34,436 nucleotides of DNA from Thiotrichaceae bacterium (GTDB lineage Bacteria > Pseudomonadota > Gammaproteobacteria > Beggiatoales > Beggiatoaceae), in the NCBI GenBank assembly GCA_016745055.1, contig JADGDF010000027.1, positions 1 to 34,436 on the forward strand, written 5' to 3'. A program made the position numbers and the translations under genes. Below, in pieces: positions 22,556 through 29,704 of this stretch (positions are counted from its first letter, which is position 1; each line of letters starts with the position of its first letter). The notes beneath the pieces were generated by a model. It did no database searches and was not told where the DNA came from. It saw nothing but the letters and a program-made list of their open reading frames with translations.

Positions 22556-25500
22556 CTACCTTACGATGTACATTTCAACTTGACCTGTGCCAACACTATT
22601 ATACTCACCCGATATTTCAAGCGTGTAATCTCCTTCTTGCAGGTAGTAAATTATGGCAGCATCACTGGTATTAATTTTACTAACTACTTGTTTTTCAAAA
22701 GCTTTTTGATCAATTAAGGTATTTAATTTCCAGTCCTGATTACTTACAATAAAATTTCCTTCAGGAAAAGTACGCAAAATTAAATGTGCATCTAGGTTAG
22801 TTTGAATGCCTTGTTTTTGCATCCCTTGACCAATGCCTTGTAAAATCACACGAGCTGGTCCACCTCTGATTGAAAATCCCCCATATAGATAATCTTCGGG
22901 TTGTTTTCCAACATGAGCTGTCGTTATTAAGCTTGTGAGTGAACTGCTTGGTGATAAATCTAAATCATAAATAGCGATTAAGCCAATACCAGGTGGACTG
23001 TTAGGTGCTGGAAACACATTAACTGTATAGGTTGCATTTGGTTGAAGATTAAATATATTGTTTGTAACTCCTGATATTTGTTGACCGCTTTCATCTAAAA
23101 CTGCCATGATAGGTTCAAGCGGCTTATCCTGGCCTTTAGGTATTCCCATCACGCCAATAAAGACTTGTTTTAGTTGAGAGCCTTCTATGGAAAACTTGGC
23201 TTTAGGATAGGCTGTGCTGTGACTGACGTAGAAACGCGTACTCAATCCAACAAAACTACCTGGCGCACGTCGTCGCGTATTGCCAAAATCTTTTGTTACA
23301 GCATATCTGACACCAGAACCAATGAATACTTCATTGGAAGTTTGTTTAATAGTAGTTAGGCCAAGATGATCATCAGACAGCTTTGGGTCAGCGACTCCGT
23401 CACCATTAAAGTCAAATTTAAATTCGCTGCCAGTCTCTTTTATAGCTAGAATAGCTGCATTTAAACTTTGACCCGCTGCAATTGTTCGCCAAAATAAATG
23501 CAGTAGTTTCATATTATAAAAGCCAAGCACCATTCTATTTGCATCAGCCATAGGCGTAGAACTTGATGATAAGCTTTTTAGAAAGGTATCAGATTTGCTG
23601 TTATTTGGATAGGTACTGTAGTAAACAACAAAGACAGGAATTTCTTTCCGTCGTAGTTCATCCAAAGCAGCCATAATCTCAGTACCACATCTCGTCAGAA
23701 ATTCAGTCGACAGATAAATTGTCAGAAACTTGGCGTCTTCATAGCTTGTACTTAAGCTACTTTTAATATTTCCACATGTTGCCTTTTTAGGTTGAATTCT
23801 TTCACATTGTAAAATGTCACAAGCAGGAGAGTTGGATAAATAGTCAATATCATTTAAGGTATAGCCTTGATAAGAAAGGGCTGCATAGATTTTCTCAACT
23901 TCTAGCTCTTGTTGATTTTCAATGATAAGCACCTTAAATTTTCTGTCTCCGACAATTTCAAATGTTTTGCTTTCAGAAATAACATGATTACCTTGTCTGG
24001 CGTAAACTTTAGCTGTATATTTTGTACCAGACTCATGGATACTCTCATTTTTCAGCGTTTTTATATGATTAAAGCTGTAGTTTCCTTTATAAATATTATT
24101 GTTGTATACCGTATCTTTTTGGGTGTAGTACAAAGTCAAATTAGGCATACCAATAATGGGTTTTGACTCATTCAAGGTTGATACAATGTTTTCATCGGAG
24201 ATTTCTGGAGGAATAAATGTCACCCAAACATCAACTGGAAGGGAAGATGATTGGCTAATTTGCACATCAAGGTGTAGCTTTTTATTAAGTTTGCTATTGT
24301 AATTACTTAAATCAACTCTTGGAGGAGATAAATGGATTGCTTCAATCTTTAATTTGTTTTTACTAACGTCTATCGGTGTACCAATTTCCCAGTCTGAGGA
24401 AGCATTTTTCGATGTAATGTTAGGTTTTTGTCCGCTATTAATATTATTTTCCGCATTTTTAAAGGCTTGCCTGACCGTTTGGCCGTTTAAAATCTCTCCC
24501 CAAAATAGCGTGGAAAAAGTCATCCCTTGCTTGGAAAAAGTCGCTTTCTCATCTGAGGAACTGGTAATGACAAAGTCGACATTTTTGTTTTCACTAGCCA
24601 ACTCCTTAAACGAGCCTGAATAGCAGGCATCATAAATAAACTGGATTTTATAGTTTATTTTAGGGGAACTTTTATTAACTTCATTATTTCCTAAGTTTGC
24701 CAGTACTTTTTTAACAAGAGAGTAGCTCAGATTTTGATCGAGATTAACGTTATCTAAAACAATTTCTCCTTCTATCTCCTTTTCATCGCCATCTTTTCCA
24801 CCGATACCATGAGAAATAATATAAATTAATATAGAATGTTCATCTTGTTGAATGTTTCCCTCACCTTGTAAATAACCATCATCATTTTGAGAGAGTTTAT
24901 TCCTTTTGGTTGCCCATTGAGTCACTGCATATTCGACATTTTCTACGGTCAAGTCCCCATTTATATCATCCGCCAATCCATTACCATCAATGTCGATATT
25001 ATCTACATTCTTTTCCTTGGTATTGGTACTTTTTTCATTATGTGCAATATAATAAATATCTTCTTTGCGAAACCCTTTGCTGCGCAAAACCCAGTAAGCT
25101 TGATTTGCATTGACTTTCATAGCATTGTTGTAATGAACGTCCCCATCTCGTCCAGCTATAATCACTGCTTTTTGTTTAGGAAAGTACTGCCCTGTTTTAA
25201 ATGATTGAATTCTGTTATATGTAGCGTCAGCAACATAGACTTGAGTCCCATCGGCCGTCGCAGCAATACCACTTGCTCTTCCAAATTGGCCTGCATAACT
25301 GCCTTTTTCACCCCATATAGCGGCTAATTTTCCATGCTCTTTACTATTTAATTTGTGAATTTGATTAGTTTCAACATTGGACACGTAAATATAATCTTGT
25401 TTATCTGAACTAATAAATAAAGGGTTATCTAAAGGAAAATCTAATTGATGGCAACGGCTATTATTATTACAAGGCCCATTTTGCCATGTTTCAATAAATT

Positions 25501-27358
25501 CACCAGATTTAGTAAACTTTTTAATATCATGTCGGTAAGCATCGCTGACAAACACAAAATCTTTTGTGACTGTAATGCCAAAAGGCAGTTCAAATTTGTC
25601 TACATCACTGCCTCTTTTTCCAAAACTGTATTGATACACCCCCTCTTTCGTAAACACATCAACCGACGCACGAAAACTATCTACAACATAAACATAGTTT
25701 TCATCAACAGTAATCCCTGAAGGTACTATAAAGCCTTGGTATGGAGTATTATGGTTAGCTAATTGTTCCAACTCCCAAAAGGAATTAAGCAAGTACAAAG
25801 GATCATCTAAATTTAGCTGGGACATATCTAAATTATCAATAGCTTTAGGTAAAAATCCCCATTCTTTTATTAGTTGATCTAACTGTTGAGGTGCAAATTT
25901 TTGAACCGAAAAATTACCTAAATTCGTCACATAAATAAACCCATCTTCATCCACAGCAATTCCCATTGGAAATAATAATGAATTTTTTCCAATGATAGAT
26001 ACATCTTCTTTTGAAGCAAGATTTCTTTTAACAACGCGATGATTGAGCATATCTGCCACATAAAGATGACTTTTGGAGTAAGTCATGCCTAAAGGTGTAT
26101 TAAATTGCCGTTCATCACCACTGCCTGAACGCCACTCATGCTCTCCCTGTTCCTTTGTTGCACCATCTTGTGCTAGCGTATATTGTACGATTGAATTATT
26201 AGGGTAACTGTAAATAACATAGGCTTTATCTTGATAAACAGAAACAGCAACAGGTAGTAAAGCATCCTGATTTAAAATGATCTCTGAACCTTGTACACTA
26301 AATAATTCTAGGAGAGACGATTTTAGCAAAAATCTTTCAAAGTTAGCAGAAATATTTTCTTTGATAAATCTATTAATTATATCAATACCAATCTCAGTTA
26401 AACTATTTAACTTGGATATCAAGTTATAGAATTTCGATTGTTTTATCCTATTAATTTTTGTTGTTTCCTTTTGGTTTGAACGGCTGTTCCATTCCGTAAT
26501 AAATTGACCATTTTCATCAAACTTGAGAATACGGTTGTTAAGTCGATCCGCAACATAGACATTATTACCTTCGTCTAACGTAAGATTTTTTGGAAAATTA
26601 AAAGTATCTCTATCACCTAAATCATTACGCTCCCAAGAATTCCAAGTATCATAATACTGAATTCCCTCTTTTGTGACTGAATATCGACGTATTTGATCAG
26701 GTTCGCGGTCTACTAAATATAAATACCCATTACTCCCCATATCCATAGCCAACAAGTGTTTAATTGACCCTTCTGGAGTCTCTGATACATCCCAACTTCC
26801 TAAAACATTACCTTTCAAATCAAATTTAGCAATTTTATGTTTAGGTTTAGCAACCCATTGGTAAGAGTTACTTTGCGTATCAAACTGACGCACTATTTCT
26901 GAGGAGTTTGTGCCTACCACATAAATATTTTCATCGTCATCAACTACTAGGTCACTTCCTCCAACAATTGAACGTAACTCACCAAATTCATTTAATAATT
27001 GGCCATCTAGTGTAAATATACGTATGAAGTGAGAAAAATCTGCGTACCTTCTGCGGTACAACACATAGATTTTGTCATGCTTGATCTCAATTTTTAGCGG
27101 TGCAAAATGTTGATGGCTATCTAATTTCCACTGCGTAATAAAGTAGCCATGAGAATTTAATTTGATGATTGAACCACTATTGGTGTTGGCAAGATAAATA
27201 TTACCGTATTTGTCATTAGCAATATCCATTGCTTCATCAAAATACCAGGGTTGTTCTAAGACAGGAAAGTAATTAGTAAAATGGTAACTTTCTATTGTTT
27301 CAGAACAGGTCGCAGAAGTGGTCAAAAACAGGAAGAAAAATAAATAAACCAGTCTCAT
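22556..27358 (-). CDS. Giant exported NHL-propeller protein with active and degenerate C13/caspase-like domains
   Basis: The protein has 1600 residues, with a signal peptide of about 18-20 (MRLVYLFFFLFLTTSA). Residues 30-725 hold about eleven NHL repeats (LYVADMLNHRVVKRN, IYVTNLGNFSVQKF), fitting two propellers. Residues 730-985 form a clan CD peptidase domain: VIIAGRDGD at 732, a Ca-loop-like DIDGNGLADD at 789-798, catalytic H850 (ISHGIGG) and C912 (YDACYSGSF), and FWGEILNGQ at 952. A beta-rich linker follows (about 1000-1135). Residues 1141-1335 repeat the fold (FKVLIIEN; FWRTIAAGQ at 1289) but have E1219 and S1248 where His and Cys should be. The end (about 1480-1600) has GGFSIRGGP...GQVEMYIV, a beta domain also seen on other large exported proteins. 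GAGG precedes the ATG. Confidence 0.85.
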   Translation of the reverse strand: MRLVYLFFFLFLTTSATCSETIESYHFTNYFPVLEQPWYFDEAMDIANDKYGNIYLANTNSGSIIKLNSHGYFITQWKLDSHQHFAPLKIEIKHDKIYVLYRRRYADFSHFIRIFTLDGQLLNEFGELRSIVGGSDLVVDDDENIYVVGTNSSEIVRQFDTQSNSYQWVAKPKHKIAKFDLKGNVLGSWDVSETPEGSIKHLLAMDMGSNGYLYLVDREPDQIRRYSVTKEGIQYYDTWNSWERNDLGDRDTFNFPKNLTLDEGNNVYVADRLNNRILKFDENGQFITEWNSRSNQKETTKINRIKQSKFYNLISKLNSLTEIGIDIINRFIKENISANFERFLLKSSLLELFSVQGSEIILNQDALLPVAVSVYQDKAYVIYSYPNNSIVQYTLAQDGATKEQGEHEWRSGSGDERQFNTPLGMTYSKSHLYVADMLNHRVVKRNLASKEDVSIIGKNSLLFPMGIAVDEDGFIYVTNLGNFSVQKFAPQQLDQLIKEWGFLPKAIDNLDMSQLNLDDPLYLLNSFWELEQLANHNTPYQGFIVPSGITVDENYVYVVDSFRASVDVFTKEGVYQYSFGKRGSDVDKFELPFGITVTKDFVFVSDAYRHDIKKFTKSGEFIETWQNGPCNNNSRCHQLDFPLDNPLFISSDKQDYIYVSNVETNQIHKLNSKEHGKLAAIWGEKGSYAGQFGRASGIAATADGTQVYVADATYNRIQSFKTGQYFPKQKAVIIAGRDGDVHYNNAMKVNANQAYWVLRSKGFRKEDIYYIAHNEKSTNTKEKNVDNIDIDGNGLADDINGDLTVENVEYAVTQWATKRNKLSQNDDGYLQGEGNIQQDEHSILIYIISHGIGGKDGDEKEIEGEIVLDNVNLDQNLSYSLVKKVLANLGNNEVNKSSPKINYKIQFIYDACYSGSFKELASENKNVDFVITSSSDEKATFSKQGMTFSTLFWGEILNGQTVRQAFKNAENNINSGQKPNITSKNASSDWEIGTPIDVSKNKLKIEAIHLSPPRVDLSNYNSKLNKKLHLDVQISQSSSLPVDVWVTFIPPEISDENIVSTLNESKPIIGMPNLTLYYTQKDTVYNNNIYKGNYSFNHIKTLKNESIHESGTKYTAKVYARQGNHVISESKTFEIVGDRKFKVLIIENQQELEVEKIYAALSYQGYTLNDIDYLSNSPACDILQCERIQPKKATCGNIKSSLSTSYEDAKFLTIYLSTEFLTRCGTEIMAALDELRRKEIPVFVVYYSTYPNNSKSDTFLKSLSSSSTPMADANRMVLGFYNMKLLHLFWRTIAAGQSLNAAILAIKETGSEFKFDFNGDGVADPKLSDDHLGLTTIKQTSNEVFIGSGVRYAVTKDFGNTRRRAPGSFVGLSTRFYVSHSTAYPKAKFSIEGSQLKQVFIGVMGIPKGQDKPLEPIMAVLDESGQQISGVTNNIFNLQPNATYTVNVFPAPNSPPGIGLIAIYDLDLSPSSSLTSLITTAHVGKQPEDYLYGGFSIRGGPARVILQGIGQGMQKQGIQTNLDAHLILRTFPEGNFIVSNQDWKLNTLIDQKAFEKQVVSKINTSDAAIIYYLQEGDYTLEISGEYNSVGTGQVEMYIVR

Positions 27359-28024: not shown

Positions 28025-29704
28025 ATGATTGAATTTACCCCTTTTGTTATCCAACCGCAAGCTAAACACTTTGCAAACCAACAAAATTTATATCTGCTTG
28101 TTCAACAACTAACGCATTGCTATCGCACGCATCAAGTTCAATATAGTTTGTTACAAGAAATAGGTTATCTTTTGTGGCAAACACTTCACATAGATTTACC
28201 TTTTATTCATGCGTATCAATTGCATAAAAAATTAGCATTATGCATTGAAAGTGACAATCCTTTTATTCAAGGCTTACCTTGGGAAAGTCTTTATCACCCT
28301 GAATTAGGTTTTTTAGGTAAACATCCAGATTTTACTTTATCCCGTTTGCTACCTGGCCAATCAGCCACACAACAACAAATCAAACCGCCACTCAGAATTT
28401 TATTATTCACAATTCCGCATCCAGAATTATTTTTTGAAGAAGAGCAATGCCAATTGTTAGAAATTTTATCACCTTGGATAGCACAAGGTCTAATTTATTT
28501 ACGTATCATGGATGATGGCTGTTTTTCAACCCTTTTCAAACAGCTCCATACGCAAATTTGGGACATCGTTTTTATCAGTGGTCATGCTCAATTCAAAAAT
28601 GGTCAAACTTTATTCAAATTTGGAGATAAATCCTTTCAATTAACCGATTTATTTCAAACGCAGCAAATTGCTTGTATTGTATTTGCTGCCTGTGAAACAG
28701 CTTACACAGATGGCCATTCATATAGTTTAGCGGCACAATTAGTCAATAAAAATATACCGCATGCGATTGGTATGCAAGCAAACTTACTAGACAGAGCAGG
28801 CACCTTATTTGTTAAACATTTTTGTGATGATTTACTGCAACATGGACGTTTAGATAAAGCCACCCAACACGCTCGTCAAGCGATGACTCAACTACTGAAA
28901 AAAAATGAAATTTGGCAGGCAGCAACGGATTTAAGCATAGGCCAATGGTGTTTACCTGTGTTGTATAGCATGATGCCCACTGTGCCTTTATTTTATAATT
29001 TTAAAAATCCTATGCCTCACAAGACTAGATTTTACTCTCTAGGACAGGCGATTGATTTACCAAAAATATTAATTGGGCGTCGAAATAGCTTAAACACCTT
29101 AAAAAATAAAGTATCCAGTTGTAAAGTTAATAAATTATGGGTATATGGCGTTGGTGGCGTTGGGAAAACAGCTTTAGTCAATCAACTAGTGAAGCAGTTA
29201 CAAAATTATCAGATTTTAATTTATTCGGAAAATGAAAAATATTTGTTACACACTGAACTATACCAATATTTTAAACTCTCTAAAAATTCTAGTTGGCACA
29301 ATATTATTGAAAAGCTAGAGCAAAAAAATTGCTTACTTTGGTTAGATAATATACCCATAGATGGTTATCAAGGATTATTTGACATTTTATCAAAAATAAC
29401 TTTACAAAAATTAATAATTATCGTTACTGCAAGACAAAAAAATAATAAAACTAATCATTTTTTTGAATATGTATTAAAACGACCTACTTATGAAAGCTTT
29501 CAAAAATATGTGCATTATTTAAGTTTGCCTTATGAAAAAGTACAAATACAGTTAATGTATAAACTATTCAATGGTAATTTCAAAGGTGTGCAATTACTTC
29601 AAACTTTGCCTTATCAACTAACAGGCCAAGCATTTACCCAGCAATTATTGGTAGTTAAACGTTATTTGCAAAGTTATCAAAAAAATAGGCATCATCAGCT
29701 TTAA
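28025..29704 (+). CDS. CHAT-domain peptidase fused to a STAND-type P-loop NTPase, no C-terminal repeats
   Basis: The protein has 559 residues and is cytoplasmic. The CHAT (caspase-like, clan CD) domain covers about 60-325, with catalytic H187 (FISGHAQ) and C223 (VFAACETA) and the typical IGMQANLLDRAGTLFVKHF region. A P-loop NTPase follows: Walker A YGVGGVGKT ending at K381-T382, Walker B LLWLDN with D441, then IIVTARQ, as in NB-ARC/NACHT proteins. STAND proteins normally continue into TPR, WD40 or LRR sensors; here the chain stops about 90 residues after the NTPase core. Relatives act in cell death or phage defence, which is only a hypothesis here. The only start has no Shine-Dalgarno, and TATAAT ends 8 bp before it. 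Confidence 0.85.
   Translation: MIEFTPFVIQPQAKHFANQQNLYLLVQQLTHCYRTHQVQYSLLQEIGYLLWQTLHIDLPFIHAYQLHKKLALCIESDNPFIQGLPWESLYHPELGFLGKHPDFTLSRLLPGQSATQQQIKPPLRILLFTIPHPELFFEEEQCQLLEILSPWIAQGLIYLRIMDDGCFSTLFKQLHTQIWDIVFISGHAQFKNGQTLFKFGDKSFQLTDLFQTQQIACIVFAACETAYTDGHSYSLAAQLVNKNIPHAIGMQANLLDRAGTLFVKHFCDDLLQHGRLDKATQHARQAMTQLLKKNEIWQAATDLSIGQWCLPVLYSMMPTVPLFYNFKNPMPHKTRFYSLGQAIDLPKILIGRRNSLNTLKNKVSSCKVNKLWVYGVGGVGKTALVNQLVKQLQNYQILIYSENEKYLLHTELYQYFKLSKNSSWHNIIEKLEQKNCLLWLDNIPIDGYQGLFDILSKITLQKLIIIVTARQKNNKTNHFFEYVLKRPTYESFQKYVHYLSLPYEKVQIQLMYKLFNGNFKGVQLLQTLPYQLTGQAFTQQLLVVKRYLQSYQKNRHHQL

What the first reader, a model, noticed from the sequence alone, without database searches (positions are those of the whole stretch)
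22556..27358. Tandem caspase and pseudo-caspase domains in one exported NHL-propeller protein
The first C13/caspase-like domain keeps H850 and C912. A second copy starts at 1141 with the same order of strands and the same closing block (FWRTIAAGQ against FWGEILNGQ, 40-41 residues after the catalytic-Cys position in both) but has Glu at the His site and Ser at the Cys site. An active protease next to an inactive copy in the same chain, behind two likely propellers, suggests a regulated, possibly substrate-presenting or self-inhibited peptidase outside the cytoplasm. I know of no described system with this layout.
Basis: partly seen in the sequence, partly recalled or inferred. Interest (0 to 1): 0.8.

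Follow-up and report, generated by a model that had tools for sequence, protein, structure and literature searches.

The report
Exported protease fused to dead twin
A large exported protein of a Beggiatoa-type sulfur bacterium carries a legumain-like (caspase-fold) protease together with a catalytically dead copy of the same domain, and relatives show that this live-plus-dead pairing is kept by selection and has evolved more than once, so the dead copy is probably a working part of the machine rather than a relic.

Summary
The 1600-aa ORF has an NHL-repeat region, a C13 (legumain-type) domain D1 (aa 727-995) with H850/C912, an Ig-like linker, a second C13-like domain D2 (1139-1354) without the dyad, and a C-terminal beta region. 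D2 is a real duplicate: profile comparison gives E 7e-29, and a D2-only model matches legumain, GPI transamidase and caspases above everything else (Z 12.8; unrelated folds at most 8.5). Six other loci (five related genomes and this genome's own paralogue) show the same layout, always with a live D1 and a dead D2. D2 evolves under purifying selection (dN/dS about 0.1-0.2). The same order on a different propeller arose separately in another gammaproteobacterial family, and reversed pairs occur behind a Reg_prop propeller. Active plus pseudo caspase folds in one chain have a precedent in gingipain; the C13 type, order, Ig spacing, propellers and recurrence appear undescribed. Best reading: an exported, propeller-guided peptidase with a built-in non-catalytic partner domain. 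Trigger and substrate are unknown.

The parts
22556..27358 (-). whole gene, 1600 aa exported NHL / C13-like / pseudo-C13 protein
   Evidence: ORF list and translation
27302..27358 (-). signal-peptide-like N terminus, aa about 1-19 (MRLVYLFFFLFLTTSATCS)
   Evidence: the most hydrophobic 19-mer of the protein is at residue 1; paralogues and orthologues start with similar signals. No signal-peptide program was available
25181..27301 (-). NHL-repeat beta-propeller region, aa about 20-726, probably two propellers
   Evidence: Pfam NHL 2.6e-21; matches to engineered Pizza propellers, TRIM71 and PknD propellers; repeat motifs
24374..25180 (-). D1, C13-type peptidase domain, aa 727-995, catalytic dyad intact
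   Evidence: Pfam Peptidase_C13 24.0 bits against a cut-off of 22.8; profile against PDB finds legumain E 1.1e-10; model against legumain Z 17.7 over 214 residues
24809..24811 (-). codon of catalytic His850 (SHG motif)
24623..24625 (-). codon of catalytic Cys912 (DACYSG motif)
23945..24373 (-). Ig-like beta-sandwich linker between D1 and D2, aa 996-1138
   Evidence: beta strands in the model; Foldseek alignment of the core to MALT1 caspase-Ig3 chains; conserved VW and YAR positions in the family
23297..23944 (-). D2, pseudo-C13 domain, aa 1139-1354, catalytic dyad absent
   Evidence: hhalign against D1 E 7e-29; independent profile; D2-only model against legumain Z 12.8; family alignments
23696..23725 (-). 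strand that should carry the catalytic His (aa about 1212-1221, FLTIYLSTEF); His loop deleted
23606..23623 (-). pseudo-Cys site, aa 1246-1251 (YYSTYP)
22559..23296 (-). C-terminal beta region, aa 1355-1600; aa about 1440-1600 recur in other exported proteins of the family
   Evidence: matches restricted to aa about 1440-1599 in many relatives
28025..29704 (+). neighbour, divergently transcribed CHAT / NB-ARC protein; context, not shown to be linked
   Evidence: Pfam CHAT 7.3e-21, NB-ARC 9.6e-5

Best explanation
The protein is an exported (periplasmic or extracellular) cysteine peptidase of the C13/legumain fold. D1 does the chemistry with H850/C912. D2 arose by duplication of the D1-Ig unit, lost the dyad, and is kept as a non-catalytic partner domain inside the same chain. 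The N-terminal propellers most likely bind the ligand or substrate that brings the enzyme to its target. D2 most likely packs on or near D1, either completing and stabilising the active enzyme or holding a substrate segment, much as dead caspase-fold partners do in gingipain and in caspase-8/cFLIP. Shown here: export signal by sequence, active-type D1, homologous D2 with the dyad gone, conservation of the pairing, purifying selection on D2, and recurrence of the pairing. Inferred: peptidase activity, D1-D2 contact, and the propellers as targeting part. Unknown: substrate, cleavage specificity, and whether D2 activates or restrains D1.
For: D1 is a C13 domain by Pfam (and stronger in orthologues), by profile against PDB legumain and by model. 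D2 is homologous and has a clan CD fold in a model made from D2 rows only: the first 39 VIA rows are all legumain, GPI transamidase, caspases or metacaspases at Z 12.8-8.8, the first unrelated chain being at 8.5. All ten chains in which both domains are readable have His and Cys in D1 and lack them in D2, while 74 of 78 single-copy domains with both positions present keep the dyad, leaving out one D2 cut off at a contig start. D2 dN/dS is 0.10 in three recent paralogue pairs and 0.19-0.22 in older ones, in the same range as D1. The active-Ig-pseudo order occurs in two gammaproteobacterial families on different propellers; in the second one D1 and D2 are each other's sisters (99/97), and a single D2 clade is rejected at p-AU 0.019. 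A reversed pseudo-then-active arrangement lies behind a Reg_prop propeller in L087, with similar multi-copy chains in L091 and L094.
Against: No activity has been measured for any member. The models have low confidence (mean pLDDT 58 and 61) and give no reliable D1-D2 interface. Legumain, the nearest solved relative, works as a monomer (PMC4357240). In legumain the S1 pocket uses Arg44/His45; the D1s here have Ala or Ser at the Arg44 position (alignments), so specificity cannot be transferred. The window's D2 is one of the most degraded, and deletion of its His loop would fit drift in this lineage.
Confidence: 0.6

Rival explanations
1. D2 is an inhibitory domain: it covers the D1 active site until the propellers bind their ligand or D2 is cut off, as the legumain C-terminal domain or the gingipain prodomain do.
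For: Clan CD enzymes are often held inactive by an adjacent domain of the same chain (Table 2 of PMC4357240, read). D2 is C-terminal to the catalytic domain, as the legumain inhibitory domain is (sequence).
Against: D2 resembles the protease, not the legumain C-terminal domain, and an Ig-like linker of about 110-140 residues separates the two. Nothing here shows contact with the active site. In the Reg_prop protein L087 the dead copy comes first, so one fixed blocking geometry is unlikely.
Confidence: 0.2
2. D2 is a decaying relic of a duplication and does nothing.
For: The window's D2 has lost the His loop and scores low against the domain profile. D2 branches are long for some members.
Against: dN/dS 0.10-0.22 on D2, in the same range as D1; invariant Leu, Gly, Ile, Tyr, Arg and Trp positions in ten D2s and a recurring Pro at the Cys site, 7 of 10; retention in six genomes of the order plus a partial seventh, and separate origins elsewhere.
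Confidence: 0.07
3. The enzyme is a transamidase or peptide ligase rather than a hydrolase, attaching proteins at the cell surface.
For: GPI transamidase (PIGK) and asparaginyl ligases belong to the same fold family and are among the structural or profile matches of these domains.
Against: Those matches come with family C13 as a whole. No acceptor system, sorting signal or conserved neighbour was seen. Legumain Arg44/His45 are not kept (alignments).
Confidence: 0.1

Closest known systems
Peptidase family C13 (legumain, asparaginyl endopeptidase/ligase, GPI transamidase PIGK), clan CD
   Same: D1 fold, DHG-type and [DE]AC.SG motifs; Pfam, profile and structural matches
   Different: bacterial, exported, behind beta-propellers, followed by an Ig-like domain and an inactive copy; S1 Arg44/His45 not conserved; no legumain C-terminal domain seen
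Gingipain R (family C25)
   Same: secreted bacterial clan CD peptidase; one chain holds an inactivated caspase-like subdomain (A) and an active one (B), plus an IgSF domain (PMC4626109, PMC4357240)
   Different: the dead subdomain comes first and directly precedes the active one; a different family, the most divergent of clan CD; no propellers
Separase (C50) and TPR-CHAT/Csx29 (Craspase)
   Same: clan CD protease in a large regulated chain; a second, inactive caspase-like unit in separase has been argued for (Viadiu, as cited and disputed in PMC4626109; later structures from own knowledge, not checked)
   Different: not exported, helical-repeat N terminus, other families; in separase the proposed dead unit is N-terminal
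MALT1 paracaspase-Ig3
   Same: caspase-fold domain directly followed by an Ig-like domain; among the top Foldseek matches of the D1-Ig-D2 model
   Different: no second caspase-fold domain; works by dimerisation of two chains
Pseudo-orthocaspases of bacteria
   Same: bacterial caspase-fold proteins that lost the His/Cys dyad (PMC6426788)
   Different: C14-type proteins whose own p20 domain is dead, not a dead copy fused to a live one; the word tandem does not occur in that paper
Expanded metacaspase sets of Beggiatoaceae (Thiomargarita, 59 metacaspases)
   Same: same bacterial family, known to be rich in caspase-fold proteins (PMC4853749)
   Different: counted as C14 (PFAM00656); C13 and NHL are not mentioned there

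Membership tests
Peptidase family C13 (D1) | Pfam Peptidase_C13 match above the curated cut-off | tested here: met
   24.0 bits against 22.8 in the window protein; 45-50 bits in orthologues
Peptidase family C13 (D1) | His-Gly and (Asp/Glu)-Ala-Cys-x-Ser-Gly catalytic motifs in order | tested here: met
   H850, C912; aligned to legumain motifs
Peptidase family C13 (D1) | legumain-type fold | tested here: met
   Z 17.7, 214 residues, 3.9 A on a low-confidence model
Peptidase family C13 (D1) | legumain asparaginyl S1 pocket (Arg44, His45) | tested here: not met
   Ala or Ser at the Arg44 position in the D1s compared (alignments); this defines legumain specificity, not the whole family
Peptidase family C13 (D1) | peptidase activity | not testable with these tools
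   no bench work
Pseudo-C13 domain (D2) | homology to C13 domains | tested here: met
   Pfam C13 reaches 1.4e-4 in two of ten D2s
Pseudo-C13 domain (D2) | clan CD fold | tested here: met
   VIA Z 12.8 to legumain, 175 residues, 3.0 A, but the model pLDDT is 61 and Foldseek alone gave no match at E 0.001 or below
Pseudo-C13 domain (D2) | catalytic dyad absent, not relocated | tested here: met
   family alignments; no Cys after residue 1224 and only His1287 and His1331 in the window's D2
Gingipain (C25) | inactivated caspase-like subdomain N-terminal to and directly preceding the active one | tested here: not met
   here the active domain is first and an Ig-like domain intervenes
Caspase/metacaspase family C14 | best structural and profile match to C14 rather than C13 | tested here: not met
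   legumain ranks above caspases and metacaspases for D1 and D2

The most novel reading that the evidence does not exclude
Propeller-guided exported C13 peptidases with a built-in pseudo-peptidase twin form an undescribed enzyme architecture that evolved repeatedly (NHL, Asp-box-like and Reg_prop propellers; both orders), in which the dead domain is an obligate intramolecular partner that creates or controls the active site, a bacterial extracellular counterpart of caspase/pseudocaspase heterodimers.
Probability: 0.35. Interest if true: 0.75.

Novelty: new variant of a known kind. Interest (0 to 1): 0.58.

Why it matters
Pseudoenzymes are best known as regulators of a partner encoded elsewhere. 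Here the live and the dead copy sit in one chain, and the pairing recurs independently with the dead copy held under selection, so it makes a compact, testable model of why a protease keeps a dead twin. It would also put a C13/legumain-type enzyme into a bacterial extracellular setting and give a first handle on part of the large, unexplained caspase-fold repertoire of giant sulfur bacteria.

Tried and rejected
Single-pair BLASTP between D1 and D2 was not significant, so profiles were needed. Foldseek with the D2-only model gave general alpha/beta folds (VWF A1, PYCR1) with nothing at E 0.001 or below; the VIA re-ranking put clan CD on top, and both are reported. The first genome-contig scan with the whole protein found nothing, while the alignment-based one found five loci. 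A Chloroflexota-wide search was not possible from a locus handle. Conserved gene neighbourhood: the adjacent genes seen in the orthologous loci differ, so no operon partner was proposed. Link to the neighbouring CHAT/NB-ARC gene: not used as evidence because it is divergently transcribed and no such neighbour was noticed in the orthologous loci. Relic hypothesis: rejected on dN/dS, conservation and recurrence. Literature searches for tandem caspase/pseudocaspase domains, and for NHL or propeller with C13 or caspase, found no description of this layout; the library is open-access only. One common origin of all D2s was tested and mildly rejected (p-AU 0.019); long branches make this uncertain.

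Full report
What was checked. The ORF at 22556-27358 (-) is real and 1600 aa long. Pfam finds NHL repeats and, above its cut-off, Peptidase_C13. The N terminus looks like a signal peptide, as it does in the paralogues and orthologues.

Is D2 really a copy of D1? One pair of sequences does not show it (BLASTP E 0.11). The families do. Five D1s against five D2s give hhalign probability 99.8, E 7e-29, over almost the full length. A profile made only from 76 single-copy C13-like domains of other proteins scores the D2s of relatives at up to 178 bits and the window's D2 at 19.6 bits, against at most 5.8 in 200 shuffles. An AlphaFold model from D2 rows only is of low confidence (pLDDT 61, pTM 0.62). 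Re-ranking by VIA still puts legumain (Z 12.8, 175 residues, 3.0 A), GPI transamidase, caspases and metacaspases above every other fold, the first unrelated chain being at 8.5. Foldseek alone was inconclusive.

Is D2 dead? The alignments of eight and ten D2s show no catalytic His or Cys in any of them. In the window and its paralogue the His loop is deleted, so 'Glu at the His site' is not quite right. The Cys site reads Ser1248, Thr1249 or Pro1251 by different alignments, and Pro recurs in 7 of 10 D2s. No Cys follows residue 1224 of the window's D2, and its only His residues are 1287, beside the FW block, and 1331, near the end of the domain. The second refutation test, a relocated dyad, also fails to refute.

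Relatives. The genome holds several paralogues, some cut by contig ends. In its order (43 genomes searched) the active-Ig-pseudo core is present in G000, G007, G011, G018, G059 and G061; G062 shows only an Ig-D2 part at a contig start. Named records for some of these are a Thiomargarita MAG, Candidatus Parabeggiatoa sp. nov. 2, a Thiotrichaceae MAG and Thiotrichales bacterium HSG1, so the window is inferred to be from the Beggiatoaceae/Thiotrichaceae group. Every member has a live D1 and a dead D2. In single-copy C13-like proteins of the genomes searched the dyad is kept in 74 of 78 cases where both positions can be read, leaving out one D2 cut off at a contig start.

Recurrence. In another gammaproteobacterial family, genomes G258 and G800 carry a signal peptide, a propeller of a different repeat type (WNGxLWVAVG...TSxDGxxWQ), an active C13-like domain, an Ig-like domain and a second C13-like domain. 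In the complete G258 copies the dyad of that second domain is replaced by Asn and Pro; the G800 copy has Tyr at the His site and is cut off before the Cys site. In the domain tree these D1 and D2 are sisters (99/97), apart from the Beggiatoaceae D1 and D2, and one common D2 clade is rejected at p-AU 0.019. A third type places dead copies first and a live one last (L087, behind a Reg_prop propeller; similar multi-copy chains in L091 and L094). L091 keeps His and Cys in a middle copy too, so that group is less clear-cut.

Selection. Nei-Gojobori estimates give D2 dN/dS of 0.10 in three G258 paralogue pairs with unsaturated dS (0.57-0.75), and 0.19-0.22 in older pairs where dS is near saturation. 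These values are in the range of those of D1, 0.06-0.31. D2 does not look like a decaying relic.

What kind of enzyme. D1 belongs to C13 by Pfam, by profile match to legumain (E 1.1e-10) and by model (Z 17.7). The D1-Ig part also resembles MALT1 caspase-Ig3. Legumain's Arg44/His45, which help make its asparaginyl pocket (PMC4357240), are not conserved in D1 (alignments), so the cleavage specificity is unknown.

Mechanism. The most likely reading is an exported C13-type peptidase, guided by its propellers, with a built-in non-catalytic partner domain. Whether D2 completes the active enzyme, binds substrate or restrains D1 cannot be told from sequence; the models are too weak to show packing. 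[quoted passage not shown] The membership claim is C13 for D1 and pseudo-C13 for D2, and not gingipain.

Novelty. No paper found in the open-access library describes C13 domains with propellers, or an active C13 domain fused to a dead one. Pseudo-orthocaspases (PMC6426788) and the metacaspase wealth of Thiomargarita (PMC4853749) are known, but neither covers this layout. I rate it a new variant of a known kind.

Noticed in passing
28025-29704 (+): Divergently transcribed neighbour with a CHAT (caspase-fold) domain and an NB-ARC-type NTPase; its sequence keeps a His (ISGHAQ) and a Cys (AACETA) where a CHAT dyad would be.
   Followed up: partly
L037 (C25), L038 (C170), L042 (C290), L043 (C266): Paralogues of the window gene are cut by contig ends at near-identical stretches (the NIDIDGNGLADDI region of D1 and the C-terminal 95 aa), suggesting recent duplication or conversion that broke the assembly.
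   Followed up: partly
L038:4163-5062 (+): A separate exported caspase-like ORF two genes from a paralogue (C170), next to a haemagglutinin-like secreted ORF.
   Followed up: no
L161, L162, L193: In the three G258 paralogues synonymous divergence is much lower in D2 (0.57-0.75) than in D1 (1.8-1.9), which looks like gene conversion of the D2 half.
   Followed up: no
L087:2693-6613 (-); L091:163-3837 (-); L094:737-4306 (-): Multi-copy C13-like proteins (Reg_prop propeller in L087) in which degenerate copies come first and an intact HC copy is last.
   Followed up: partly
L040:2509-7093 (-): In the Thiomargarita orthologue the propeller and the D1-Ig-D2 parts lie in two overlapping ORFs (723 and 820 aa open frames); a frameshift or an assembly error.
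   Followed up: no
22559-23040 (-): The C-terminal part (aa about 1440-1600) recurs, often in two or more copies, in other large exported proteins of the bacterial family and got no Pfam match in the window protein.
   Followed up: no
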